44,789 nt of DNA from a virus: the IMG/VR virus record IMGVR_UViG_3300032401_000025, positions 1 through 44,789 of that record; one strand, 5' to 3'. Under the pieces are notes generated by a model. It was not told the DNA's origin. It ran no database searches and worked only from the letters and a program-made list of their open reading frames with translations. How positions within the stretch are numbered: position 1 is the stretch's first letter; each line of letters starts with the position of its first letter. Position numbers and translations under genes: made by a program. Positions 3,965 through 28,181 of the stretch are shown piece after piece.

Positions 3965-4492
3965 ATGAATCATTATTACACTAATTGCTTAATAAATAAC
4001 TCTTTTTTGGACTATCCTAACAATGAAGACCAATGTATTTCGATTTATATGTTAGGTTGTGATATAGGGTGCATGGGATGTATTAATAAATCATTGGCTG
4101 ATATAACTATTGAAAATGATAATAAAATCACTATAAGTGTAATTAAATTGATAGAATTATTAAAAATAAAATCTAAAAATACAAAAAGTAATAAAATATG
4201 TTTATTAGGTGGAGACCCACTTTTTAATAAAAATATAGACTTTACTAGAGAGTTATTGATCAGCACTAATAATTTATTTGATTTTTGCGTATATACAGGG
4301 TATGATATAGATTATGTAGTAAAAAACGATATAAGTGGATTTAAATTTATAAAAACGGGTAAATATATAGAAGAATTAAAGCAAGAATCATTAAAAACAG
4401 ATGATTTTATACAATTCGCTTCAAAAAATCAACATTTATACGATTCACAATTTAATTTATTGTCAAAAGAAGGTAAATACTATTTTAATTAA
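3965..4492 (+). CDS. nrdG: anaerobic ribonucleotide reductase activating enzyme (radical SAM)
   Basis: 175 aa, the usual length for NrdG. The radical-SAM cluster motif CxxxCxxC is at C32, C36 and C39 (GCDIGCMGC), followed by a GGDP motif (82-85) that matches the SAM-binding GGE-type motif of this family. The enzyme uses a 4Fe-4S cluster and S-adenosylmethionine to place a glycyl radical on NrdD. Its partner nrdD begins 21 bases downstream, which makes the assignment firm. A 4Fe-4S radical enzyme implies function under anoxia. Confidence 0.92.
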   Translation: MNHYYTNCLINNSFLDYPNNEDQCISIYMLGCDIGCMGCINKSLADITIENDNKITISVIKLIELLKIKSKNTKSNKICLLGGDPLFNKNIDFTRELLISTNNLFDFCVYTGYDIDYVVKNDISGFKFIKTGKYIEELKQESLKTDDFIQFASKNQHLYDSQFNLLSKEGKYYFN

Positions 4493-4500
4493 TAATAAAA

Positions 4501-4516
4501 AGGGGAGATAAAAATG
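4501..4516 (+). promoter_or_regulatory. strong Shine-Dalgarno before nrdD
   Basis: AGGGGAG at 4501-4507 sits 6 bases before the nrdD ATG (4514). Almost every other start in the window lacks such a sequence and has A-rich leaders instead. It may mark a gene acquired from, or tuned to, a different translational background. Confidence 0.5.
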
Positions 4517-7081
4517 TTCACAGATGATGTAAGAACCAATAGAACTTTAAAAAATATAAGGAAGTCTTTAGAAGATAATTTAAAAATCAAATATAATATT
4601 GAAGATAAAGATATAATTGATAATATTTTAAAAATACACGGATTACATAAAGATAATTTTGATTTCGTATCAAACATTGCAAAAATAATCAATGAAAGAT
4701 TAAACGATATAAGTATAGATGCTAATTCAAATAAGAATGAAAAAACTATCGAAGGTATTAATCAAGAAGTAATGGCGTCAACTAAAAAATTAGTTGGCTT
4801 TGATTATTTATATCGAGTGATGAAAGATAATTACGGACAAGAAGAAGCTAAAAGATTAGTAGGTGAAATGTTAGATTTATCTATAGGTATATCCGACTCC
4901 ACTCAATTAATGAAACCATATTGTTACGCTATAGACGCATCAAAATTAATTACTATAGGTAGACCATTCGGTCAACTACAATCAAAAGGAGCTAAAAGAG
5001 TAAGTTCATATATATCGTCTTTATGCGAAACAGTTCATCAATTAAGTAATCATTTAGCAGGTGCTTGTGCTGTTGGTACATTCTTTTTAGATATAGCTCA
5101 TTTATGCATATATAAACATAAATATTCATTATTTCAATTAAGAGATGATAATAATTTAAGAAAACAAATAGAAAATGAATTTCAACAATTCGTACATTCA
5201 GTAAATCATTTATCAAGAAATGCTAATGAATCACCGTTTACGAATATTTCTATATTTGATAGAGAAAAAATTAAAACATTAATAAATGATGATAATTTTG
5301 GATGGTATTTTGAAAAAAATGAAATATTAAATGAATTAATCTTTCAAGAACAGAATCATCTTTTAGCAAAAGATATAAGTAATGAAAAAATAAATGAAGA
5401 ACAATTCATTACCGAATATATAATTACATTACAAGATTTGTTTTTAGATTTCTTCGATAAAGGAGACCCACTACAAGGTGGAATGCCATATCGCTTTCCA
5501 GTGTGTTTTAAAGGGTCTGAATTAATTATAGTAAACGATTCTTTAATCGATTTACAGAGTTTTATAAAGAATGAAGGTTGGCGCGATGTATCTGATAAAA
5601 ATTTTTATACAGAATATGAAGGAACCCCTGTTAAAATTATGAAAACTTACAAGGGGTTAAGTAAAAATTTTGTTAAGATAAAATCTAAGAATGGGGTGGG
5701 AAAAGATATTATAGTAACGCCAGAACACAAATTTCCTACAAATAAAGGATTAGTGGCTGCAAAGGATTTAAAAAAGGGTGACAGAATCTGTTTTTATAAA
5801 AAGGAATTGAAAAATTCATTTACAAGTTTTATTAAGGTAGAAGAATTTTTGAAAGAAGAAGAAAAAACAAGGCGCCGTCATCAAAACAGAAAAGATAGTT
5901 TTATTGTACATTCTGCAATTCCATTTGAAGAGGAATTACCGGTGGAAGTTTACAATATTGAAGTAAATAACGAAGAACATTTGTTTACTTTACCTTGTGG
6001 GGTAAATACTTCAAACTGCACTGTAAATATTTCTAAAAAAGAAAACGGTGAAATTAAAATATTAGATAAAAAATTTCTACATGATATATGTAAAAGAGAC
6101 ATATATAGATATAATATATTTACATCAGAAGGTACAAAAACCGCAAGTTGCTGTCGTTTGATTAATAATTCTGAAATGTTAGAACTAGCATCTCAATCTA
6201 ATTCTTTCGGCGGCGCTTCAGTTAGTTTAGGTTCACATAGAGTCGTAACAATAAATATGAATAGAATAGCTTTAGAGTGTGAATCTGAAGAAAATTATTA
6301 TGAAATATTAAACAATAGATTAGAATCTACAGCTAAAGTATTAAAATCACATAAAGATTTAATTAAAACACTAACAGATAAGGGATTGCAATATTTTGTT
6401 AAATCAGGGTGGATTCAATTAAATAGACTATTTTCTACGTTTGGTATACTTGGAGTATATGAAGCTAATGAAACACTAAGAAAAAGATTTAATATAGATA
6501 ATAATAAAGATTTAATAGGTGAGATATTAATATTTTTTAATAATAAAGTAAATCAATTATCTAAAGAATATAATATAATAGGTAATATCGAAGCTATCCC
6601 AGGCGAATCATTCGCAGTTAGATTATGTGACGTAGATAAAATAATATATAATAAAGAAAAGGTAAATTACGAATTATATTCTAATCAATTCGTACCACTA
6701 TGGGAAGATAGTACTATATGGGAAAGAATGGCCATAGACGGTAAATATAATAAGTTGATAACTGGCGGTGGGATAGTACACTGTATGATAGGTGAAAAAG
6801 TAACAGCATCTCAAGCTGAAAAGATAATAAAATATTCTATAGAATCAGGTTGTGAACATTTTGCATTAAATGCTGTATACAGTAAATGCATAAAAGGACA
6901 TGTATCATTCGGTAAAAAAGAAATATGTTCAATATGCGGTGAGCATATAGAGGATATGTTTACACGAGTAGTTGGATTTTTTGTACCAGTATCTAGTTGG
7001 AATAAAACACGTAGAGAATGGGAATTTCCTAAAAGAACTTTCGTTTTAAAAGAAAATATTAAATCATCTGACAATCAATAA
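4514..7081 (+). CDS. nrdD: class III anaerobic ribonucleotide reductase, intein-containing
   Basis: 855-aa precursor; removing the 171-aa intein (residues 331-501) leaves 684 aa, normal for NrdD. The enzyme reduces ribonucleotides to deoxyribonucleotides with a glycyl radical and supplies dNTPs for phage replication without oxygen. Visible signatures are SCCRL (C546-C547, active-site cysteine region), the following GSHRVVTINMNRIAL strand, and the C-terminal glycyl-radical motif RVVGFF with G821. The metal-site region before it reads C792-x3-H796 ... C805-x2-C808, so one position usually held by Cys may be His here. No N-terminal ATP-cone is evident. NrdG is encoded directly upstream. Activity requires intein removal, because the insertion splits the conserved PV/CTVNIS segment. 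Confidence 0.93.
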   Translation: MFTDDVRTNRTLKNIRKSLEDNLKIKYNIEDKDIIDNILKIHGLHKDNFDFVSNIAKIINERLNDISIDANSNKNEKTIEGINQEVMASTKKLVGFDYLYRVMKDNYGQEEAKRLVGEMLDLSIGISDSTQLMKPYCYAIDASKLITIGRPFGQLQSKGAKRVSSYISSLCETVHQLSNHLAGACAVGTFFLDIAHLCIYKHKYSLFQLRDDNNLRKQIENEFQQFVHSVNHLSRNANESPFTNISIFDREKIKTLINDDNFGWYFEKNEILNELIFQEQNHLLAKDISNEKINEEQFITEYIITLQDLFLDFFDKGDPLQGGMPYRFPVCFKGSELIIVNDSLIDLQSFIKNEGWRDVSDKNFYTEYEGTPVKIMKTYKGLSKNFVKIKSKNGVGKDIIVTPEHKFPTNKGLVAAKDLKKGDRICFYKKELKNSFTSFIKVEEFLKEEEKTRRRHQNRKDSFIVHSAIPFEEELPVEVYNIEVNNEEHLFTLPCGVNTSNCTVNISKKENGEIKILDKKFLHDICKRDIYRYNIFTSEGTKTASCCRLINNSEMLELASQSNSFGGASVSLGSHRVVTINMNRIALECESEENYYEILNNRLESTAKVLKSHKDLIKTLTDKGLQYFVKSGWIQLNRLFSTFGILGVYEANETLRKRFNIDNNKDLIGEILIFFNNKVNQLSKEYNIIGNIEAIPGESFAVRLCDVDKIIYNKEKVNYELYSNQFVPLWEDSTIWERMAIDGKYNKLITGGGIVHCMIGEKVTASQAEKIIKYSIESGCEHFALNAVYSKCIKGHVSFGKKEICSICGEHIEDMFTRVVGFFVPVSSWNKTRREWEFPKRTFVLKENIKSSDNQ
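5504..6016 (+). other. mini-intein coding segment within nrdD
   Basis: In-frame 513-bp insertion encoding 171 aa (residues 331-501 of the NrdD precursor). It begins with Cys (CFKGSELIIVND, intein block A) and has a block-B-like IIVTPEHKF with the T-x-x-H pair. It ends with VEVYNIEVNNEEHLF (block F) and VNTSN followed by Cys+1 (block G). The penultimate residue is Ser, not the usual His. About 90 residues separate the splicing blocks and show no LAGLIDADG or HNH motif, so it is a splicing-only mini-intein. Exteins join as RFPV-CTVNIS. The segment uses more AAG and GGG codons than the flanking gene, consistent with separate ancestry. Confidence 0.9.
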
Positions 7082-17826: not shown

Positions 17827-18390
17827 ATGAATAGAATCACAATAATAAATCATTTTATAAAAAAAAATGATTATAAATCGTATTTAGAAATAGGTTGTCA
17901 AAACAATACCACATTTAATAATATAAACATTATTCATAAGGTTGGGGTAGACCCAGAAAAAGGCGGTACTAATAAATGTACTTCCGATGAATATTTCGCA
18001 ATACATAAAGATAAATTTGATATAATATTTATAGATGGATTACACCATTCAGAACAAGTAGATAAAGATGTTATAAATTCACTAGCTTGTTTAAATGAAG
18101 GTGGAACAATTATAATGCATGATTTATTACCTGAAGACGAAAAAATGCAAATAATTCCAAGAGAAACTAAAGCATGGACAGGTGATGTTTGGAAGAGTTG
18201 GGTTAAGCTACGCCAAAATAGAGATGACTTAAACATGTTTGTTATAAATACAGATATGGGTTGTGGAGTAATTACTAGGGGTAAACAAAAAAAATTAATA
18301 AATAAATTAGAATTAAATTACAATAACTTTGCTAAAAACAAAGAAAAATGGATGAATATCATAAGTCCAGAGGATTTCTTAAATAAGTAA
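17827..18390 (+). CDS. class I SAM-dependent methyltransferase
   Basis: 187 aa. It has the Rossmann-type motifs of the O-methyltransferase 24-like group: motif I YLEIGCQNN (22-30), VGVDPEKGG, then KFDIIFIDGLHHSEQVDKDVINSLACLNEGGTIIMHDLLPED. This SAM-dependent enzyme often accompanies glycan loci and methylates sugars or their precursors. It is the first gene of the glycan cassette. The substrate is not deducible. Confidence 0.8.
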   Translation: MNRITIINHFIKKNDYKSYLEIGCQNNTTFNNINIIHKVGVDPEKGGTNKCTSDEYFAIHKDKFDIIFIDGLHHSEQVDKDVINSLACLNEGGTIIMHDLLPEDEKMQIIPRETKAWTGDVWKSWVKLRQNRDDLNMFVINTDMGCGVITRGKQKKLINKLELNYNNFAKNKEKWMNIISPEDFLNK

Positions 18391-18403
18391 TTTTAAATTC
18401 ATT

Positions 18404-19102
18404 GTGAAAAATATCGCGATTTATACATGTAATTTCAACAATTATGATGATTTCCATGAACCATCTTATATTGATAGCAAAGTAGATTATTATTATTTTA
18501 CCGATACAAATTACAAATCAACGAAATTCAATATACGTAAAATAGATTTTAATAATTTTAGTTCTTGTCCTCAAAGAGCGGCTAGATACGTAAAAATAAA
18601 TTCACATATAGTTTTACCACAATATGAATATACTATATGGGTAGACTCTTCTTTCATTATCAATTTTACAAACACCGAAGAATTTATTAAAAAAGCATTA
18701 GCTAATAAACAAATAGCGTGTTATAAACACGGTTCTATAAATAGTTTTCAAACATGTATATATGATGAAGCTAGAGTATGTATAGAGGCCGGTTTAGATA
18801 ATAAGGACCTGATAACGAACCAGATGATTAAGTATAAAAAAGAGCATTACCCAGCTAATCGTGGTTTATTTTCATCTGGATTAATAGTAAGGAAAAATAC
18901 ATATGATATACAAAAATTTAATTCTATTTGGTGGAGTGAGATTTTTAATGGAAGTAAAAGAGACCAATTATCACAAATGTACGCAGCTTGGAAAATGAAT
19001 ATTGAAATTAATAAGATAGATGATGGTTATAATATATACAACAATCCATACATAACTAAATTTAAACACATACATAAACAAAAACAATTAATAAAAAAAT
19101 AA
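18404..19102 (+). CDS. DUF616-type glycosyltransferase
   Basis: 232 aa, started at GTG 18404 because no ATG precedes the conserved IAIYTCNFNNYDDF strand. It matches the DUF616 (TOD1/MUCI70-like) glycosyltransferase pattern: YYYFTD, SCPQRAARYVKINSH, YEYTIWVDSSF, GLFSSGLIVRKN and KRDQLSQMYAAWKM. In the family this is a GT-A-like fold that transfers sugars. Part of the cassette; acceptor unknown. Confidence 0.75.
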   Translation: MKNIAIYTCNFNNYDDFHEPSYIDSKVDYYYFTDTNYKSTKFNIRKIDFNNFSSCPQRAARYVKINSHIVLPQYEYTIWVDSSFIINFTNTEEFIKKALANKQIACYKHGSINSFQTCIYDEARVCIEAGLDNKDLITNQMIKYKKEHYPANRGLFSSGLIVRKNTYDIQKFNSIWWSEIFNGSKRDQLSQMYAAWKMNIEINKIDDGYNIYNNPYITKFKHIHKQKQLIKK

Positions 19103-19106
19103 AGTA

Positions 19107-19883
19107 ATGGAAATAAACTTAACTACAAACGATGTATATAAAAGGTTATCGCAAGCATTAGAACTCGAATTATCATATTCTTTACTACGTATAGGTGATG
19201 GTGAAGCTATATTATTAAGCGGATTTGATGATAGAGCACGTTTAAATAAATTTTTTATAAAACAATTTGGATATATATTAGAAGATAAGCACGTAGAAGA
19301 AATAATAAATAATTTAATAGAAGCATATGAAAATTGTTCTTTAATAGGTATTCCAACAAAGTTACATACTGAAAAAATAGGTGGGTATTGGAAAAAAGCT
19401 TCAGAACTATTGAAAGAAAAAGTTAAAAGTATAAAAGACAGAGTAGAATACTGTTCTATAGATGTTCATACGGATATGTTAAAAGCAGGTTGTTTAGATG
19501 AGTTATTAAAACAAGTAGATTCTGTTTATTATATTTCATGTAGGGATTTGAACGAAGGATTTAAAAGAAAATACCCAAATATTAAAAACGTACATTCATA
19601 TATTATAGCACCTGAAAGCGTATACACCCCTGATTATGTTGGTAAGAAACATTATCCAGAGCAATTTAATGAAATAAAAGAATGGATAAACAGTTTAGAT
19701 AATTTAAGTGGAAAGCTTTGTATAATTGGAGCTGGTTGCATCGGGAAAATATATAGTAATTGGTTTGCGAATAAAGGAGCTGTTAGTGTAGATTTAGGTA
19801 ATGTGTTAGATTTATGGTATGGAAAAATAACCAGAGGACCACAAAGAGGAGCTCAATCATTTAATGATTTATATAAATTATAA
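19107..19883 (+). CDS. GT-D-type glycosyltransferase
   Basis: 258 aa. The LLRIGDGEAILL motif near the N-terminus (R28-I-G30-D31-G32-E33) and the C-terminal KLCIIGAGCIGKIYSNW ... VSVDLGNVLDLWYG match the GT-D (DUF1792) glycosyltransferase family, in which the D-G-E element binds metal and UDP-sugar. It begins 4 bases after the DUF616 gene. It is predicted to extend a glycan chain; sugar and linkage unknown. Confidence 0.75.
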   Translation: MEINLTTNDVYKRLSQALELELSYSLLRIGDGEAILLSGFDDRARLNKFFIKQFGYILEDKHVEEIINNLIEAYENCSLIGIPTKLHTEKIGGYWKKASELLKEKVKSIKDRVEYCSIDVHTDMLKAGCLDELLKQVDSVYYISCRDLNEGFKRKYPNIKNVHSYIIAPESVYTPDYVGKKHYPEQFNEIKEWINSLDNLSGKLCIIGAGCIGKIYSNWFANKGAVSVDLGNVLDLWYGKITRGPQRGAQSFNDLYKL

Positions 19884-19887
19884 AATT

Positions 19888-20505
19888 ATGGAAGAAGTAA
19901 GCAAACAAGAAGTAGATTTCTATAAAACAATTATAGGAGAATTGAAATTAGTTATAGATGTTGGTTGTAAAAACGATAATATATTTTATGAATTAAATAA
20001 TAATTTAGAAATACATTTGTTCGACCCAATGAAAAACCCTAGTGTTATTTTAGAAAAAATAAAAGATAAACTAAATATAAAATTCAATAATTACGGATTG
20101 GGTAGGGAAGAAACTAAAATAGATTTATATTATCAGTACGGTTCTATGATGCATAGGACAGAAGAGCCAAAATTTGATGATTTACATGATACATTTAAAG
20201 TAAAATTAAGAACATTAAAAAATTATTGCGTAGAAAACAATATAGAAAAAATAGACTATTTAAAAATAGATACAGAAGGTTGGGATTTTGAAGTAATGTT
20301 AGGTTTGGGTGATATGAGATATAATACCAAATATATTCAATTTGAAAAATTTGATTATTATGCAAATAATGAAACACTTAAAGACATATTAAGATATTTT
20401 AAAAACTGGAATTTATATGAAGTCGGTGGCAAACCATTAAATTATTTATTTACTTTGGAAGAACTTACACAATTAAAAAAAATAGAGGTATGGAAAAAAA
20501 ATTAA
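19888..20505 (+). CDS. FkbM-family methyltransferase
   Basis: 205 aa from ATG 19888 (MEEVSKQEVDF); an in-frame ATG at 19864 overlaps the previous gene and is less likely. FkbM-type features are LVIDVGCKNDN (motif I), IHLFDPMKNPS, then KIDYLKIDTEGWDFEVMLGLG, the family hallmark. Such enzymes O-methylate sugars or polyketides. It overlaps the next gene by 16 bases. Confidence 0.82.
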   Translation: MEEVSKQEVDFYKTIIGELKLVIDVGCKNDNIFYELNNNLEIHLFDPMKNPSVILEKIKDKLNIKFNNYGLGREETKIDLYYQYGSMMHRTEEPKFDDLHDTFKVKLRTLKNYCVENNIEKIDYLKIDTEGWDFEVMLGLGDMRYNTKYIQFEKFDYYANNETLKDILRYFKNWNLYEVGGKPLNYLFTLEELTQLKKIEVWKKN

Positions 20506-21374
20506 AGATAGAAAAAAATAAATTGTATTTAGTTACAGGTGGTACTGGGTTTTTAGGTAAATCATTAATAAAAAGAATATTAGAACAAGGTGGACTTATT
20601 AGAGTTATATCAAGAAATGAAGGTAAATTAATAGAATTAAAACAAGCATTTCCATCTATAGAAATACTAACAGGTGATATATGTGATGTACATAGTATAC
20701 ACCAAGCATGTATGAATATAAACGGTATATTCCACTTAGCAGCAGCTAAACATGTAGGATTAGCAGAAACACAAAGTAGAGAGTGTATAAAAACAAACAC
20801 TATAGGTAGTTTAAATATATTAGAAGAAACATCTAAATCAGATATGGATTTTATATTAGGTATAAGTACAGATAAAGCCGCACAGGTTTCAGGTGTATAT
20901 GGGGCATCTAAAATGTTAATGGAAAAATTATTTAGACAATTTGAAAGTAACAATACACAAATAGAATATAGAATTGTTAGATATGGCAATGTATTATATT
21001 CAACAGGTTCAGTATTGTGTAAGTGGAAAGAAAGAATAAAGAACGCAGAACATATAGTTATTACAGAACCATTAGCAACTAGATATTTTTGGACAGTAGA
21101 ACAAGCTATAGATTTGATATTTAATTGTATGGAAAATGCTACTAATAGTTCTCCATTTTGCCCAGAAATGAAATCTATATCAATAGGTGATTTATTATTA
21201 GCAATGGTTGATAAATACTTACCACATGATATAGATAAACAGATATACTTAAATAATGTAAAAACAATAGGTTTACAAAAAGGAGAAAATTTACATGAAA
21301 AGATATTAGAAGATGGAAAAAATTCTAATGAAGTAGAAAAATTTACTATAGAAGAAATAATAAAAATGATATGA
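20490..21374 (+). CDS. NAD(P)-dependent UDP-GlcNAc 4,6-dehydratase-like (PseB/FlaA1-type)
   Basis: 294 aa extended short-chain dehydrogenase/reductase. It has the Rossmann motif VTGGTGFLG (T16-G23), FHLAAAKHV, STDKA (S126-K129) and YGASK (Y137, K141), then RYGNVLYSTGSV and LATRYFWTVEQAIDLI, close to the PseB/FlaA1 pattern. The T-D-K and Tyr spacing agrees with that family's active site. Reaction: dehydration (and, in PseB, 5-epimerisation) of UDP-GlcNAc to a 4-keto-6-deoxy sugar. The DegT aminotransferase at 22905 is the natural next step. It is slightly shorter than usual (about 330). Confidence 0.8.
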   Translation: MEKKLKIEKNKLYLVTGGTGFLGKSLIKRILEQGGLIRVISRNEGKLIELKQAFPSIEILTGDICDVHSIHQACMNINGIFHLAAAKHVGLAETQSRECIKTNTIGSLNILEETSKSDMDFILGISTDKAAQVSGVYGASKMLMEKLFRQFESNNTQIEYRIVRYGNVLYSTGSVLCKWKERIKNAEHIVITEPLATRYFWTVEQAIDLIFNCMENATNSSPFCPEMKSISIGDLLLAMVDKYLPHDIDKQIYLNNVKTIGLQKGENLHEKILEDGKNSNEVEKFTIEEIIKMI

Positions 21375-22144
21375 AAAAATTTAAAGGTACTTGGGTTCCG
21401 ATAGAGTCATCATATATACAAGCATGTAGCGAAATAATAAATAGAGATATACATAATTTTAAAAGACACTCTGTTTACTCTAAATTTATAAGTCCGGGTA
21501 AACCTTTAAGCGTAGCAATGGAATATTATAAATACATTGAAAAAAAATATTTTTATCTTTATTCTTTTTTTGATAAATTTTCAACAAATGATTCAATCGG
21601 AGATCCAATAGTACATGATTTAGAAGGTATTAAATTATCTTCAAGTACTTTACAAATGATAAAAATATTAGGAGATATACAATTATATTTTGGGGATTTA
21701 AATAATAGTGATATTATAGAAATAGGTGGCGGTAATGGGGGGCAATGTAAGATTATATCTGATTTAATCCAATTCAACTCATACACTATAATAGATATAA
21801 AAGAAAGCCTGAAAATAGCTAAAAGAAGTTTAGAGAAATTAGTCGATGAAAATATCTTTAAAAAAATATTATTTATTGATATTAATGAGATAAAATTAAA
21901 AAATAAATATGATTTAGTAATAAGTAACTATTGTATTTCTGAATTAAACATAGAAGGCCAGATCTTTTATATAAAAGAGGTAATAAGTAAATGTAATAAT
22001 GCTTATTTTTTAATGAACTGCAATCAAACATCAATAAATTTATTCGTACTTAAATTAAGTGAATATTGTAGTAAAATAAATATTTCGTTTGAGACACCTG
22101 CGGTAAATAATAAGAATAACCATCAAATAATTTGTGCAAAATGA
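21371..22144 (+). CDS. putative sugar O-methyltransferase (copy 1)
   Basis: 257 aa. It starts MKKFKGTWVPIESSYIQAC, with SAM motif I IIEIGGGNGGQ, later YDLVISNYCISELNIEGQIFY, as in the putative sugar O-methyltransferase family seen in capsule loci. It is a paralogue of the 24581 gene: the same N-terminal GTW, FIS and IG(D/A)P landmarks and the ISELxxxGxxFYIKxVI segment. Coupled to the dehydratase (ATGA) and to the next gene. Donor SAM; acceptor presumably a sugar of this pathway. Confidence 0.72.
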   Translation: MKKFKGTWVPIESSYIQACSEIINRDIHNFKRHSVYSKFISPGKPLSVAMEYYKYIEKKYFYLYSFFDKFSTNDSIGDPIVHDLEGIKLSSSTLQMIKILGDIQLYFGDLNNSDIIEIGGGNGGQCKIISDLIQFNSYTIIDIKESLKIAKRSLEKLVDENIFKKILFIDINEIKLKNKYDLVISNYCISELNIEGQIFYIKEVISKCNNAYFLMNCNQTSINLFVLKLSEYCSKINISFETPAVNNKNNHQIICAK

Positions 22145-22908
22145 TTTATATACACGAAACTAATCATAGTTTTTTTAAGTCTTTAGCGAGGGTTGTTAAG
22201 TATTATTTGCAACAATCGGGTATAGAATCTGCAATAATTAAAAATATTGCTAGTGAAGATATAGATATAACCGATGAAAATATTTATATATTGAATTATA
22301 TCTCTTTTAAAGAAGGAATAAGAAAGAAAAAATATATAGCAATACAAACAGAGCCATTACATTGTAAAGACTTTAAAGAATATAAAATATGGTTAAATAA
22401 CGCAATAGAGGTATGGGATTACTCTACAAATTTACATATAGGGTATTCTAAAATATGGAAAATAGAAAAAGAAGAGAGTAAAGATATAGATGTATTATTT
22501 TACGGGGCTTTAAATGAAAGAAGAATAAATATTTTAGATAATGTAAAAAAAACAATACCTAATATTGTTATTTTAGAAAACATATACGGTAAAAACTTAG
22601 AAAAAACATTAATAGATACTAAAATCGTTTTATGTTTTTTTTATTATGATAATTTAGATAACGATATGTCAAGAATAGCTCCATTAATATGTAAAAGAAA
22701 TTTTTTAATAGCTGAAACATGTGAACATTCTAATTTTAATTGGTTGAAAGAATGTATAGTTACAAGTAGCGTAGATAAATTAGGCGAGCTATGTAAATAT
22801 TATTTAGATAACCCAGCAGAAAGATTAAAACAAATAGACAAAAGTTACGATTATTTAAAAAATAACTATTCATTTAATATACAAAACACTTTAATAAAAA
22901 ATATATGA
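22141..22908 (+). CDS. GT-B-like glycosyltransferase
   Basis: 255 aa from ATG 22141, which overlaps the previous stop as ATGA; a start at 22132 would only add MCK. The segment KDIDVLFYGALNERRINIL followed by KTLIDTKIVLCFFYYDN ... RIAPLICKRNFLIAETCEH is the C-terminal Rossmann pattern of a GT-B type glycosyltransferase acting on nucleotide sugars. The N-terminal part is short. Its end overlaps the aminotransferase gene by ATGA. Confidence 0.65.
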   Translation: MIYIHETNHSFFKSLARVVKYYLQQSGIESAIIKNIASEDIDITDENIYILNYISFKEGIRKKKYIAIQTEPLHCKDFKEYKIWLNNAIEVWDYSTNLHIGYSKIWKIEKEESKDIDVLFYGALNERRINILDNVKKTIPNIVILENIYGKNLEKTLIDTKIVLCFFYYDNLDNDMSRIAPLICKRNFLIAETCEHSNFNWLKECIVTSSVDKLGELCKYYLDNPAERLKQIDKSYDYLKNNYSFNIQNTLIKNI

Positions 22909-24008
22909 TACCACTATTCAAAGTACATATGACACCAAATATTGGTGCTAAATTAGAAGAAGTTTTAATGTCTGGGTTTATTGGCCAGGGTAAAAAAGTA
23001 GAAGAATTTGAAGATTTTTTAAAATGTATTTTACAAAATAAATATATTTTGACTGTAAATTCAGCTACTTCAGCATTACATACATTATTACATATGTTTA
23101 AGGAAAAGGATTGTGAGGTATTAACTTCACCATTAACCTGCACAGCTACTAATTGGCCAATATTAGCTAATGGTATGAAAATAAAATGGGTTGATGTAGA
23201 TGATACTTGTAATATGGATTTAGAAGACCTTGAAAGAAAATTATCACCTACTACAAAAATAATAATGTTAGTTCATTGGGGTGGTTATCCAATTGATTTA
23301 ACGAAAATACAGCAAATAAGAGAAAAGTGTTTAGAATTATATGGATTTATGCCTATTGTTATTCAAGATTGCGCTCATTCAATGAAAAGTACATATAAAG
23401 GTAATCAATTAAGCTGTTATTATAATGGAGCATATTCATTTCAAGCAATAAAACATTTTACAACAGTAGATGGTGGTTGCTTGTTTGTTAACAGCAAAGA
23501 AAATTATGAAAGAGCTAAATTATTAAGGTGGTATGGCATAGACAGAGAATCTAATAAAAAGGATTTTAGATGCGAAGAAAACATTTATGAATGGGGATAT
23601 AAATTTCACATGAATGACGTTAATGCAACTATAGGTATACACAATTTACCAGCTATTGATTTTGTAGTTTCCAAACATAGAAATAATTCTAATTATTTTG
23701 ACACTGCTTTATTAAATACAAGTGGTATTACAGTAATAGAAAAAGAACAAGATAGAATTTCATCACAATGGATTCATACTATACATATAGAAAGAAGAGA
23801 TGATTTTATAAAATATATGACAGAAAAAGGTATAATGACTTCTAGAGTACATGAAAGAAACGATAAACACACTTGTGTAAGCGACTTTAAAACACAATTA
23901 CCCCAATTAGAGAAAGTTGTTAAAACAATGGTTTGTATACCAAATGGGTGGTGGGTGGCAAATGAAGATAGGGAATATATTACAGAAACTATAAAGAAGG
24001 GTTGGTAA
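22905..24008 (+). CDS. DegT/DnrJ/EryC1/StrS-type PLP aminotransferase
   Basis: 367 aa, full family length. The PLP lysine is K183 in SFQAIKHFTTVDGG. Other family landmarks are NSATSALHTLL (substrate/PLP phosphate loop), IVIQDCAHS with D155, and the C-terminal SSQWIHTIHIERRDDF. It aminates the 4-keto sugar made by the PseB-like enzyme, so the pair should give a UDP-4-amino-4,6-dideoxy sugar. Coupled on both sides to neighbours. Confidence 0.88.
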   Translation: MIPLFKVHMTPNIGAKLEEVLMSGFIGQGKKVEEFEDFLKCILQNKYILTVNSATSALHTLLHMFKEKDCEVLTSPLTCTATNWPILANGMKIKWVDVDDTCNMDLEDLERKLSPTTKIIMLVHWGGYPIDLTKIQQIREKCLELYGFMPIVIQDCAHSMKSTYKGNQLSCYYNGAYSFQAIKHFTTVDGGCLFVNSKENYERAKLLRWYGIDRESNKKDFRCEENIYEWGYKFHMNDVNATIGIHNLPAIDFVVSKHRNNSNYFDTALLNTSGITVIEKEQDRISSQWIHTIHIERRDDFIKYMTEKGIMTSRVHERNDKHTCVSDFKTQLPQLEKVVKTMVCIPNGWWVANEDREYITETIKKGW

Positions 24009-24009
24009 T

Positions 24010-24584
24010 ATGGAAAAATTAGAAAAATTAAAAAGGGAAATAGGCATACATAAATATGTATACTTGGATACACTATATGATGAAGTTATAAAAAATACAC
24101 CATCGAAAATAATAGATTTTGGTACTAAAACAGGGCTAACAGCTATAACAATGGCATTAGCTTTAAAAGAATTAAATAATAGTGGTCATATAATAACATA
24201 TGATAGTTGGGATGAAAATGTAAAAGATTGTTTGAAAGGTCATAATTTTACTTATAATGAAGCTAAAGAAAATATAGAAAGATATAGTGTTGAAAATATA
24301 ATTAAAATAAAAACAATGGATTTTTGGGATTGGGTGACTAATGTAGAAAATTTTGACATGATGTATATTGATATAGATAACGATGGTGGTAAATTATTAA
24401 AATTATACAACTCAACGATTCAATTAATACAAGGTGGAGCTATAATATTATTTGAAGGGGTTCTATCGAAAGAGACAATGTTCCATGGATGAAAGATAGA
24501 GTGAAAATAAACGGCGTAAAAAACAAAATACATTATACAATAATAAATGAAAAATTTCCATCATTATCAAAAATAAGTATATGA
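24010..24584 (+). pseudogene. class I methyltransferase gene broken by a frameshift
   Basis: The frame from 24010 gives 160 aa ending FEGVLSKETMFHG at 24492. It contains IIDFGTKTGLTAITMAL (SAM motif I), IITYDSWD and FDMMYIDIDND. If one G is added to the G-run at 24457-24460 the reading becomes FEGGSIERDNVPWMK and continues to TGA at 24584, giving about 191 aa with the expected EGG...RDNVPWM end and an ATGA overlap with the next gene. A single-base deletion, or a homopolymer sequencing error, is therefore likely. Residues after the break are lost in the frame as written. Confidence 0.8.
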
Positions 24585-25387
24585 AGTTCGACGGAACGTG
24601 GAAACAACCAAAAAAAGAAAAATTTAAAGAAGCTTGTAGAAAAGCAATAGAAACTGATTTGAAATATTTCAAAACAGATGCAGATTATTGTCAATTTATA
24701 AGCGTAAATGCTAGGCCATATCAATATACAAGAATACATGGTCATTATATAAAAGACAACTATCCTGAAATGTTAACCCCAAATGTTTTAGATATATGTA
24801 AGGCAAGTGATGCTATAGGTGCTCCTAGTTTATATGACGTTTTTGGAAGACAAATATCAGCTGGTTCTATGCTTTATTTAAAAGTAATGACTGATATGGA
24901 AAAGAGATTTTATTTACAAAAATGTAAAAACATAGTTGAAATAGGCCCTGGTTATGGTGGATTAGCTAATATTATAGTTAATTATGTACGAGTGATAAAA
25001 AATTCTAAACTATTAGAAAAATATAGATTGATAGATATAACAGAGAGTTTAGATGTTGCAAAATTATTTTTACACAAAACTAATCACAATTATGAAAAGT
25101 TTGTATTTGAAGACACAGATAATATAACTATCGGTCAAGATATAGATTTGGTAATAAGCAACCACTGTATTTCAGAATTGGATAAAAATGGAATAATGTT
25201 CTATATTAAACACGTCATACAGCACGCCGAACATGCATATTTTTTAACGTCTTTTAGGGACATAATGATGATGTATTATTTTATAGGGCAAATGGCAAAG
25301 CATTTTAAAAGAATAGAAATTTTACCAGAAGAACCAACATTTAATCAAATAAAAGATAATAGAATAATAATTTGTAGTAAAAAATGA
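24581..25387 (+). CDS. putative sugar O-methyltransferase (copy 2)
   Basis: 268 aa and paralogous to the 21371 gene. It shares GTW near the N-terminus, QFIS, IGAPSLYD, motif I IVEIGPGYGGLA and VISNHCISELDKNGIMFYIKHVI, but is otherwise diverged. SAM-dependent methylation of a sugar is inferred. Its ATG overlaps the TGA of the reading frame restored for the frameshifted gene upstream. Confidence 0.72.
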   Translation: MKFDGTWKQPKKEKFKEACRKAIETDLKYFKTDADYCQFISVNARPYQYTRIHGHYIKDNYPEMLTPNVLDICKASDAIGAPSLYDVFGRQISAGSMLYLKVMTDMEKRFYLQKCKNIVEIGPGYGGLANIIVNYVRVIKNSKLLEKYRLIDITESLDVAKLFLHKTNHNYEKFVFEDTDNITIGQDIDLVISNHCISELDKNGIMFYIKHVIQHAEHAYFLTSFRDIMMMYYFIGQMAKHFKRIEILPEEPTFNQIKDNRIIICSKK

Positions 25388-26184
25388 TGAATAATTATAT
25401 CGTTACTTGTGATAAAACAGCTTGGATATTAAACACCACAATACATCTATATAATAAATATTGTGATAGTATGTTTGATATATGTACACCAATTATATTA
25501 GGGTTTACAGAAAGGCCAAAAACTTTAGATAATTGTATTTTTATGTCTATAAAAGATAAACAAGAAACAATACAAACATGGACTAGAGATTTATACAATG
25601 TTATCAAAGAAGATAAAAACGAATTTTGCATATTTTCATTAGATGATTATTTACCTATCGATTATTTTAATAAAGATATATACGAAAAGGTTTTTAAATT
25701 AATGGAATCAAATGAGAATATAGTTAGATATGAGTTCAGTTACGGGGCTAGTCAAAAAAAAGAAATAGAAATCATAGAAAACCACGACACATTTAAAATA
25801 TTTAAACTAGCTCAAACAGCGCCATATAGAATAAGTTGTCAAATATCTTTATGGAGAACGAAACATTTATTATCATATTTAAACAATGATTGGACGCCGT
25901 GGGAATTTGAAATTAAAGGTTCTAAATTAGCTTATAATGATGGAAAAGAAGTCATAGGAACACTCGAAAATCATTGTATGAGGTATATAGAAGAAAGTGC
26001 ATTATCTAACAGACACCCCGGGTGGATAAATGTTTTAGGATTAAAGCATAAAGATAGAGAGGAGTTAATAAAGTTAGGTTACATAGATGAAAACAAAATA
26101 CAATACGGTATGGCTAAAGGAGATAATCCAAAAGAATTTGATATAAATAAAATAGGTATGAAATATTTGAAGTTTTATAGGTAA
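25384..26184 (+). CDS. probable glycosyltransferase (GT-A-like)
   Basis: 266 aa. An N-terminal NYIVTCDKTAWILNTTIHLYNKY strand-helix and FCIFSLDDYLPIDYF (a DxD-like D-D pair after a short strand) are typical of GT-A enzymes, as is a later PYRISCQISLWRTKHL segment. It resembles glycosyltransferases of bacterial capsule clusters by pattern only. The start overlaps the previous stop, and the next gene begins within its stop codon. Confidence 0.6.
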   Translation: MMNNYIVTCDKTAWILNTTIHLYNKYCDSMFDICTPIILGFTERPKTLDNCIFMSIKDKQETIQTWTRDLYNVIKEDKNEFCIFSLDDYLPIDYFNKDIYEKVFKLMESNENIVRYEFSYGASQKKEIEIIENHDTFKIFKLAQTAPYRISCQISLWRTKHLLSYLNNDWTPWEFEIKGSKLAYNDGKEVIGTLENHCMRYIEESALSNRHPGWINVLGLKHKDREELIKLGYIDENKIQYGMAKGDNPKEFDINKIGMKYLKFYR

Positions 26185-26720
26185 TGATATATTTTTTTAC
26201 ACCATATAGTTTTGAGAAAAGACTCGGAAGAGCATATAATGATTATATACAGCTAGTACCAAATGATGATGATTGGATATGTTTAGTAGATGCAGATGTT
26301 ATGTTTTTAACCCCTGATTTTGGGCACCAATTACAAGAAATAATAAATTTATATCCAGATACTGGTTTATTTACATGTTATACTAACAGGGTTGGTACGT
26401 TAGAGCAATGTTGGACAAATCAAATATCTGAAAATTCTGATATTAAATATCATAAAATGTTAGCCACTCAATTACAAAGAGAAAGAAGGTTATTGGTAAA
26501 ACCGTTGAAGAAGATAATAAGTGGGCATTTAATGTTATTTAAAAAAAGTACATGGAAACACATAGGTGGATTTAGAACAGTTGGTATATTAGCAGTAGAT
26601 AATTATTTCAGTAAAGCTGTTTTAAATCTAAATATGCCTATATTACTTATGGAAGGAGTATATGTATTACATTATTATAGATTATTAGAAGGCCGTGTTT
26701 TTAGAAACCATTTAAAATAA
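26184..26720 (+). CDS. family 2-type glycosyltransferase
   Basis: 178 aa. DDDWICLVDADVMFLTPDF (D36-A37-D38) is the metal/nucleotide-binding DxD. LLVKPLKKIISGHLMLFKKSTWKHIGGFRT and VDNYFSKAV match the acceptor region of GT2 enzymes. It is shorter than full GT2 proteins because the usual N-terminal nucleotide-binding strand region is reduced to MIYFFTPYSFEKRLGRAYND. Overlaps the previous stop by one base. Confidence 0.7.
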   Translation: MIYFFTPYSFEKRLGRAYNDYIQLVPNDDDWICLVDADVMFLTPDFGHQLQEIINLYPDTGLFTCYTNRVGTLEQCWTNQISENSDIKYHKMLATQLQRERRLLVKPLKKIISGHLMLFKKSTWKHIGGFRTVGILAVDNYFSKAVLNLNMPILLMEGVYVLHYYRLLEGRVFRNHLK

Positions 26721-26724
26721 TTAT

Positions 26725-26871
26725 ATGTCATTTGCATTAAAAACAACAGAATTATTTAGTAATTTGATAACCATCAATATACAAATATCTTTTAATAAGA
26801 AAAGAATAAAATTGAGATTAAATAAATTAAAATTATTCGGTATAAATATAAAAAGCAAAGGTAATGTCTAA
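26725..26871 (+). CDS. small basic hypothetical protein
   Basis: 48 aa starting 4 bases after the glycosyltransferase stop. Very basic and helical (SFNKKRIKLRLNKLKLFGINIK), not recognised. Spacing supports it as a gene but it could be a remnant of a longer one. Confidence 0.35.
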   Translation: MSFALKTTELFSNLITINIQISFNKKRIKLRLNKLKLFGINIKSKGNV

Positions 26872-26921
26872 GGTTAGTGAAATTTTTAAATTAATTTATA
26901 AATATTATTAAAATTAAAATT

Positions 26922-27038
26922 ATGGCAAGAAGAAAAAAAAGAAAATCACACATATCTATGAAATTAAGATATGAGTGTTTAATGATTTTTATAAATTTAG
27001 CTAAAAACAAGAGACTTAAACCGATTAAAGTATGGTAA
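26922..27038 (+). CDS. tiny basic hypothetical protein
   Basis: 38 aa beginning MARRKKRKSH, extremely basic, in a good A-rich start context. Possibly a nucleic-acid-binding peptide; no further evidence. Confidence 0.35.
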   Translation: MARRKKRKSHISMKLRYECLMIFINLAKNKRLKPIKVW

Positions 27039-27057
27039 ACTTTATTTTTAAATTATA

Positions 27058-27792
27058 ATGATAGATGTAATAATTCCTTTAGGTATAGGGAGTAAATGGG
27101 AAAATAACGAACTCAGATATTGTTTACGAAGTTTAGAAACTAATTTTTTAGACTTAGGTATAATATATTTAGTAGGACATAAACCTGATTGGGTAAAGGA
27201 TATAGTGCATATAGAAAGTGAAGATACATTTCTACATAATAAAGATGCTAATATTATTAAAAAAACATTATTAATATGTGAAAGAAGGTCTGTATCTGAT
27301 TATATTATGAGAATATCTGATGACCAATTATTATTACAACCTATGTTTAGTAGAGAAATAAAACCATTATACCAATTAGAATTAAACGAATCATATTTTC
27401 AGAAAATGAATAGATGGAGAAGAAGATTAAAAAATTCATTCGAAGTATTAAAAAAAGACAAAATAGAAAAGATATATAACTATGAAACACATATACCAGT
27501 CATATACGATAGAAGGCGATTTATAGATACATATACTAAATATAAAGATTGGGCTATTGATGGGGCCGGATATACCATAAATACGATGTATTTTAATAAT
27601 ATAAAATGTGATAAAGTAAAACTTACAAATGAAAAAGCATGCTTTGAACAACCCGTACAAACAGTAGAAGAAATAATAAAAATGTTAAAAAACAAATTAT
27701 ATTTAGGTTATAATGATAACGGGTTAAATGATAATTTAAAACAAGTTATAAAAGAACTATTTCCAAAAAAATCTAAGTTTGAAAAATTTTAA
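27058..27792 (+). CDS. glycosyltransferase/Stealth-like sugar-phosphate transferase
   Basis: 244 aa. The opening MIDVIIPLGIGSKWENNELRYCLRSLE, with NELRYCLRSL, and the later SDYIMRISDDQLLLQP and NYETHIPVIYDRR recall the conserved regions of Stealth-type capsule phosphotransferases (ELRY.LRS, nDD, and the HiP block). It could instead be a GT-A glycosyltransferase. It is the last catalytic gene of the cassette before the tRNAs. Confidence 0.55.
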   Translation: MIDVIIPLGIGSKWENNELRYCLRSLETNFLDLGIIYLVGHKPDWVKDIVHIESEDTFLHNKDANIIKKTLLICERRSVSDYIMRISDDQLLLQPMFSREIKPLYQLELNESYFQKMNRWRRRLKNSFEVLKKDKIEKIYNYETHIPVIYDRRRFIDTYTKYKDWAIDGAGYTINTMYFNNIKCDKVKLTNEKACFEQPVQTVEEIIKMLKNKLYLGYNDNGLNDNLKQVIKELFPKKSKFEKF

Positions 27793-28026: not shown

Positions 28027-28099
28027 AGCGGGGTAGAGCAGTGGTTAGCTCGTCAGTCTCATAATCTGAAGGTCGTTGGTTCGAATCCAACCCCCGCTA
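28027..28099 (+). tRNA. tRNA with CAU anticodon (Met; initiator-like scaffold)
   Basis: Cloverleaf: acceptor AGCGGGG/CCCCGCT, D-arm GAGC/GCTC, anticodon loop CTCATAA, T-arm GTTGG/CCAAC, discriminator A at 28099. CCA is not encoded. The D-stem has the A11:U24 pair characteristic of bacterial initiators, and the surrounding sequence recalls initiator tRNA. However, the three anticodon-stem G:C pairs of initiators are missing and a U-U mismatch closes the loop, and position 1:72 is a paired A:U. It may be an elongator Met, tRNA-Ile2 (lysidine-modified CAU) or a modified initiator. Confidence 0.9.
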
Positions 28100-28107
28100 C
28101 AAATTAT

Positions 28108-28181
28108 TGTCTCTTAGTGTAATTGGCTAACATGTCAGATTTTGATTCTGAAGAGTCCTAGTTCGAGCCTAGGAGAGACAA
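28108..28181 (+). tRNA. tRNA-Gln (UUG anticodon)
   Basis: Acceptor TGTCTCT/AGAGACA, anticodon stem TCAGA/TCTGA around loop TTTTGAT (anticodon TTG), T-arm CCTAG/CTAGG, no encoded CCA. It reads CAA, the preferred Gln codon in this A+T-rich DNA. It lies 8 bases after the CAU tRNA, in tandem, and 15 bases before the HAD gene. Confidence 0.93.

What the first reader, a model, noticed from the sequence alone, without database searches (positions are those of the whole stretch)
5504..6016. Splicing-only mini-intein inside anaerobic ribonucleotide reductase
The NrdD frame carries a 171-residue insertion with intein blocks A, B, F and G, starting with Cys and ending in Asn before Cys+1, and with no endonuclease motif. 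The penultimate residue is Ser instead of the usual His, which can slow the Asn-cyclisation step and might make splicing conditional, for example on redox state or temperature. The insertion splits a conserved strand near the active-site SCCRL segment, so the enzyme should be inactive until spliced.
Basis: partly seen in the sequence, partly recalled or inferred. Interest (0 to 1): 0.75.

Follow-up and report, generated by a model that had tools for sequence, protein, structure and literature searches.

The report
Self-splicing mini-intein in phage NrdD
A phage gene for the oxygen-free enzyme that makes DNA building blocks carries a small self-removing protein insert (a mini-intein) at a site not seen in any relative examined, with an altered set of splicing residues, which makes it a testable example of an intein changing position and chemistry.

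Summary
The NrdD frame (4514-7081) carries a 171-residue in-frame intein at exactly 5504-6016, starting at Cys1 and ending in Ser-Asn before Cys+1. It passes the TIGR01445 cut-off, falls below that of PF14890, and no endonuclease domain was matched. A 51%-identical phage NrdD has the exact empty site (RFPV|CTMNIS), and none of 49 relatives has an intein there. Spliced NrdD keeps its radical-chemistry residues.

(1) The insert is most similar, end to end, to a large family of NrdD inteins sitting 45 residues downstream, directly before an essential SCCR-motif Cys. It scores 50 bits against that family's profile; seven other inteins score 12-25. It therefore looks like an offshoot that moved site and lost its endonuclease. 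(2) The penultimate His was lost while a block-F His is present. All 38 distinct SCCR-site inteins show the reverse: penultimate His, no block-F His, Cys at F:4 (here Asn). A block-F His is known to take over Asn cyclisation, so ordinary class 1 splicing is expected.

Conditional splicing has no support beyond the Ser, which other phage inteins share. New variant of a known kind; splicing itself is untested.

The parts
3965..4492 (+). nrdG-like activase gene (radical SAM/Fer4_12), directly upstream of nrdD
   Evidence: PF13353 39.4 bits over cut-off
4514..5503 (+). NrdD N-extein, residues 1-330, ending ...GGMPYRFPV
   Evidence: PF13597, NF006127; homologue alignment
5504..6016 (+). 171-residue mini-intein (Cys1 to Asn171)
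   Evidence: TIGR01445, PF14890 below cut-off, SCCR-site intein profile 49.8 bits at exactly these coordinates; fold search hits are inteins
5504..5533 (+). block A, CFKGSELIIV, Cys1 nucleophile
5717..5728 (+). block B T-P-E-H (T72, H75)
   Evidence: sequence; aligned with the TxxH of other inteins
5954..5956 (+). block F position 4: Asn151 (Cys in all 38 distinct SCCR-site relatives)
5978..5980 (+). block F His159 (Pro in 35 of 38 SCCR-site relatives, His in none)
6011..6016 (+). block G end: penultimate Ser170 and terminal Asn171
6017..7081 (+). NrdD C-extein with stop, starting with Cys+1 (CTVNIS...)
6152..6154 (+). second Cys of the SCCR motif (spliced residue 376), aligned with essential C330 of T. 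maritima NrdD; insertion site of the related inteins
   Evidence: alignments; PMC4493059
4922..4924 (+). Cys137 (PYC), aligned with residue 79 of T4 NrdD; another NrdD intein site in L003, L015, L067
6974..6976 (+). glycyl-radical Gly (spliced residue 650), aligned with Gly621 of T. maritima NrdD

Best explanation
This is a class 1 mini-intein in a phage NrdD gene. After translation, Cys1 makes a thioester with the N-extein, Cys+1 takes it over, Asn171 cyclises to cut the C-terminal joint, and the exteins join as ...RFPV-CTVNIS..., giving an active 684-residue anaerobic ribonucleotide reductase. Asn cyclisation is probably helped by block-F His159 in place of the lost penultimate His. By descent it is most likely an offshoot of the widespread SCCR-site NrdD intein family that settled 45 residues upstream in the same protein and lost its endonuclease. 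Shown: sequence, boundaries, empty site, kinship by profile, residue swap. Inferred: splicing chemistry, the role of His159, the relocation.
For: All class 1 nucleophiles are present. Exact empty site in L003, 51% identical, and no intein there in 49 of 49 relatives. Full-length match to SCCR-site inteins, 50.1 bits against 12-25 for seven other inteins and at most 6.7 for 200 shuffles; 49.8 bits from first to last model position at 5504-6016. The best PDB intein scores 41.1 bits on a profile of this family, over part of it. The fold model's matches are inteins and other HINT proteins (confidence 61). SCCR-site family: penultimate His 38/38, block-F His 0/38, F:4 Cys 38/38, while the window has S, H, N. 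A block-F His can stand in for the penultimate His (PMC5050341). The catalytic Cys and Gly residues of NrdD are intact.
Against: No splicing data. PF14890 is below its cut-off. The kinship margin over the best PDB intein is modest (49.8 against 41.1 bits), the intein tree is weakly supported with a long window branch, and the endonuclease was cut out of most relatives by hand before profiling. No second copy at this site exists in the sample, so selection on the insert cannot be measured. F:4 is Asn, not among the residues (Asp, Cys, Trp) reported as commonest there.
Confidence: 0.8

Rival explanations
1. Splicing is conditional: the Ser170/His159 arrangement, or a disulfide among Cys1, Cys165 and Cys+1, holds the precursor until a signal (redox, temperature) allows splicing, so NrdD is switched on only without oxygen.
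For: Penultimate residue tunes precursor build-up in a phage intein (PMC5050341); redox control is known for a mycobacterial DnaB intein (PMC6195587, title and abstract only). Cys165 lies six residues before the last residue.
Against: In the tested phage case the non-His residue made splicing faster, not slower. Cys at the 165 position also occurs in relatives that have penultimate His (L111, L128, L140). No regulatory element was seen.
Confidence: 0.1
2. The intein is decaying: loss of the penultimate His and an altered block F leave it slow or able only to cleave, and the NrdD gene is on the way to being non-functional.
For: Three conserved active-site positions have changed compared with the related family; PF14890 below cut-off.
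Against: 171 in-frame codons without a stop, all nucleophiles and TxxH kept, and the NrdD exteins keep the invariant catalytic residues checked, with nrdG intact next to it. A block-F His is present where relatives have none.
Confidence: 0.12
3. The intein was gained at FPV|C independently from another intein lineage, and its likeness to the SCCR-site family is convergence or shared distant ancestry.
For: Low overall identity, about 26%; weakly supported tree; a TFIIB intein reaches 41 bits on a profile of the same family.
Against: End-to-end match, the FTLPxGxxT ending shared with 53 NrdD inteins, best score among all non-member inteins compared.
Confidence: 0.3
4. The insert is not spliced and stays as a folded HINT domain in NrdD.
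For: Splicing was not tested.
Against: F-P and T beside the joint are invariant and no relative carries an insert there; both splice junctions are complete.
Confidence: 0.04

Closest known systems
NrdD inteins at the SCCR motif of phage and bacterial class III RNR (for example L050, L052, L059, L069, and Nitratidesulfovibrio phage SRB7757)
   Same: Same host protein, CF start, block B TxxH in most...FTLPxGxxTxN|C end, full-length profile match
   Different: They sit 45 residues downstream; 35 of 38 distinct ones are 325-357 aa (LAGLIDADG found in L052); all have penultimate His, F:4 Cys and no block-F His
Putative inteins and split nrdD genes reported in phages (Clostridium phage c-st, Lactococcus phage 949, Jug phages)
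   Same: Intein or intein-like insert in a phage nrdD gene (PMC3653736, PMC12363816)
   Different: Insertion sites are not given in the passages read; sequences were not compared here
Class 1 phage inteins lacking the penultimate His (mycobacteriophage Bethlehem RDF and others)
   Same: Class 1, phage gene, Gly, Lys or Ser at the penultimate position (PMC5050341)
   Different: Different host genes; the RDF intein carries an endonuclease
gp41-1 and NrdJ-1 mini-inteins (solved structures)
   Same: Splicing-only HINT domain with a similar block B region and fold
   Different: Different host proteins; gp41-1 and NrdJ-1 are naturally split inteins (own knowledge)

Membership tests
Class 1 intein | Cys or Ser at position 1 | tested here: met
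   Cys1
Class 1 intein | Block B TxxH | tested here: met
   T72-P-E-H75
[quoted passage not shown]
   N171 then Cys+1
Class 1 intein | Penultimate His (common, not obligatory) | tested here: not met
   Ser170; exceptions that splice are known
Class 1 intein | Intein-less homologue with exact empty site | tested here: met
   L003 RFPVCTMNIS; also Cys at this position in L017, L050, L051
Class 1 intein | Curated profile cut-offs | tested here: inconclusive
   TIGR01445 passed, PF14890 not
Class 1 intein | HINT fold | tested here: inconclusive
   Foldseek matches are inteins, but model confidence is only 61
Class 1 intein | Protein splicing activity | not testable with these tools
   needs expression
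Mini-intein | No homing endonuclease domain | tested here: met
   171 aa, no LAGLIDADG, HNH or GIY-YIG match
SCCR-site NrdD intein family | Full-length sequence match to the family | tested here: met
   50.1 bits, model 1-168 on residues 1-171
SCCR-site NrdD intein family | Insertion directly before the second Cys of SCCR | tested here: not met
   Inserted at spliced residue 331, not 376
SCCR-site NrdD intein family | Penultimate His, F:4 Cys, no block-F His | tested here: not met
   Ser170, Asn151, His159
Class 2 intein (KlbA type) | Ala at position 1 with Ser at the penultimate position | tested here: not met
   Ser170 matches but residue 1 is Cys
Class 3 intein | No Cys or Ser at position 1, Cys at F:4 | tested here: not met
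   Cys1 present, F:4 is Asn

The most novel reading that the evidence does not exclude
An intein family that normally sits at the essential SCCR cysteine of NrdD produced a member that moved to a second site 45 residues away in the same protein, lost its endonuclease, and exchanged its Asn-cyclisation helper (penultimate His to Ser, block-F Pro to His, F:4 Cys to Asn) while keeping splicing.
Probability: 0.45. Interest if true: 0.6.

Novelty: new variant of a known kind. Interest (0 to 1): 0.45.

Why it matters
Inteins are usually tied to one site by their homing endonuclease, so related inteins at different sites of one protein are uncommon and informative (own knowledge). Here a reciprocal pair can be compared directly: SCCR-site inteins with penultimate His and no block-F His, and this one with block-F His and no penultimate His. 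Single and double swaps would test whether these two histidines are interchangeable helpers of Asn cyclisation. More broadly, NrdD in phages is a hot spot: inteins sit before two active-site cysteines and now at a third conserved segment.

Tried and rejected
Alternative C-terminal boundary GVN|TSNC: rejected, because it would leave three extra residues where every relative aligns without a gap. Search for other inteins at the same site by N-junction pattern PYRFPxCxxG in viral contigs: three chance matches only. Search with the intein protein in viral contigs and phages: no close relatives. The first scan of bacterial genome contigs found nothing; the second, with a better alignment, found 17 NrdD relatives. 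Single-sequence structure prediction failed (confidence 34); with an alignment it reached 61. Base composition does not mark the insert as foreign (27-30% GC against 18-29% in neighbouring windows). Clostridium phage c-st, reported to have an NrdD intein, was deliberately not fetched because it is a toxin-carrying phage.

Full report
What is there. The window is part of a contractile-tailed phage contig (portal 12405, major head protein 33034, tail sheath 38546). An nrdG-like gene (3965-4492) is followed by an 855-residue NrdD frame (4514-7081). Residues 331-501, nt 5504-6016, are a 171-residue insert with CFKGSELIIV at the start, TPEH as block B, VYNIEVNNEEHLF as block F and TSN before Cys+1. 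TIGR01445 matches it over its cut-off from residue 1; PF14890 matches at E 1.1e-6 but under its cut-off. No endonuclease domain was matched.

Boundary and empty site. In L003, a phage NrdD 51% identical over 680 residues, the same place reads NGMPYRFPVCTMNISK without an insert. Across 49 distinct contigs with the site covered, none has an insert there. F328, P329 and T332 are invariant in an 11-sequence alignment and position 331 is variable (C, V, T, S or A). Cys at 331 with an empty site occurs in L003, L017, L050 and L051, so Cys+1 is compatible with the enzyme. After excision the residues aligned to the essential SCCR cysteines (C329 and C330 in T. maritima, PMC4493059), to residue 79 of T4 NrdD and to the glycyl-radical glycine (Gly621 in T. 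maritima) are all present.

Kinship. Other NrdD inteins turned up at two recurrent sites, directly before Cys137 (L003, L015, L067) and directly before Cys376 of SCCR (L018, L050, L052, L053, L059, L067, L068, L069). A scan for the ending FTLPxGxxTxNC, which leaves the penultimate residue free, gave 63 stretches in viral contigs; 53 end THN|CR and none but the window continues C-T. Thirty-eight distinct SCCR-site inteins could be cut out: three are mini-inteins (140-151 aa), 35 are 325-357 aa, with a LAGLIDADG domain shown in L052. A profile of their splicing parts matches the window insert from end to end at 50.1 bits; seven other inteins from these contigs score 12-25 bits and 200 shuffles at most 6.7. 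A smaller profile hits the window contig at exactly 5504-6016, 49.8 bits, while the best intein in the Protein Data Bank gets 41.1 bits over part of the profile. A tree leans the same way but with weak support and a long branch. I take descent from the SCCR-site family as likely, not proven.

Active site. The 38 SCCR-site inteins all have penultimate His and Cys at F:4, and none has His at the block-F helper position (Pro in 35). The window intein has Ser170, Asn151 and His159. The literature describes F:13 as most often His and a block-F His as able to take over the role of the penultimate His; it also reports Gly, Lys and Ser at the penultimate position in mycobacteriophage inteins, one of which (Gly) splices completely and is slowed when His is introduced (PMC4031507, PMC5050341). 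Class 2 inteins also have Ser there, but with Ala1. So the Ser points to an alternative helper, not to a slow or conditional intein. That His159 is this helper is inferred from its position two residues before the conserved Phe, as in other block-F motifs.

Fold. With a 20-row alignment the model reaches a mean confidence of 61 and pTM 0.45. Foldseek against solved structures returns inteins at the top (RecA, DnaB, gp41-1, NrdJ-1) and Hedgehog domains lower down. This supports HINT, but the end region is poorly modelled.

Verdict. A real class 1 mini-intein, most likely functional, at an NrdD site unseen in the relatives examined, with a reworked helper set. Inteins in phage nrdD are known (PMC3653736, PMC12363816), so this is a new variant of a known kind. 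Splicing, the role of His159 and any conditionality need the bench tests listed.

Noticed in passing
L018:3986-7723: NrdD is split at SC|C: the first ORF ends in an N-intein half, a separate 394-aa ORF of no Pfam family follows, then a C-intein half plus C-extein. This looks like a natural split intein around a free-standing gene (fractured-gene arrangement) directly at the SCCR cysteine.
   Followed up: partly
L018:7828-8796: GIY-YIG endonuclease ORF whose C-terminal end is a second copy of the last ~35 residues of NrdD (DYLTRVVGFFTPVSSWTKIRREWEFENRKF), as if it had captured the end of the gene.
   Followed up: partly
L067:344-6238: One NrdD gene in a Neomarinimicrobiota MAG contig carries four apparent inteins: at Cys137, two close tandem ones near residues 229 and 240 (both ending ISGN|S, penultimate Gly), and at the SCCR site.
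   Followed up: partly
L017:4999-5314: nrdD is interrupted a few residues after the FPVC site by about 300 bases with stops; no Rfam group I intron match, nature unknown.
   Followed up: partly
viral contigs L088-L150: SCCR-site NrdD inteins are very common in IMG/VR (53 stretches with the THN|CR ending), and one is in the cultured Nitratidesulfovibrio phage SRB7757 (L152), whose record has no annotation.
   Followed up: partly
L008:730-2742: NrdD of this phage contig is open only with TGA read as Trp, so the phage appears to use a recoded genetic code.
   Followed up: no
window 17827-27792: A block of sugar and surface-polysaccharide-type genes (DegT aminotransferase, Polysacc_synt_2 epimerase, glycosyltransferase-like, methyltransferase-like) sits between the portal and head genes of the phage.
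   Followed up: partly
window 28027-28181: Two tRNA genes side by side.
   Followed up: no
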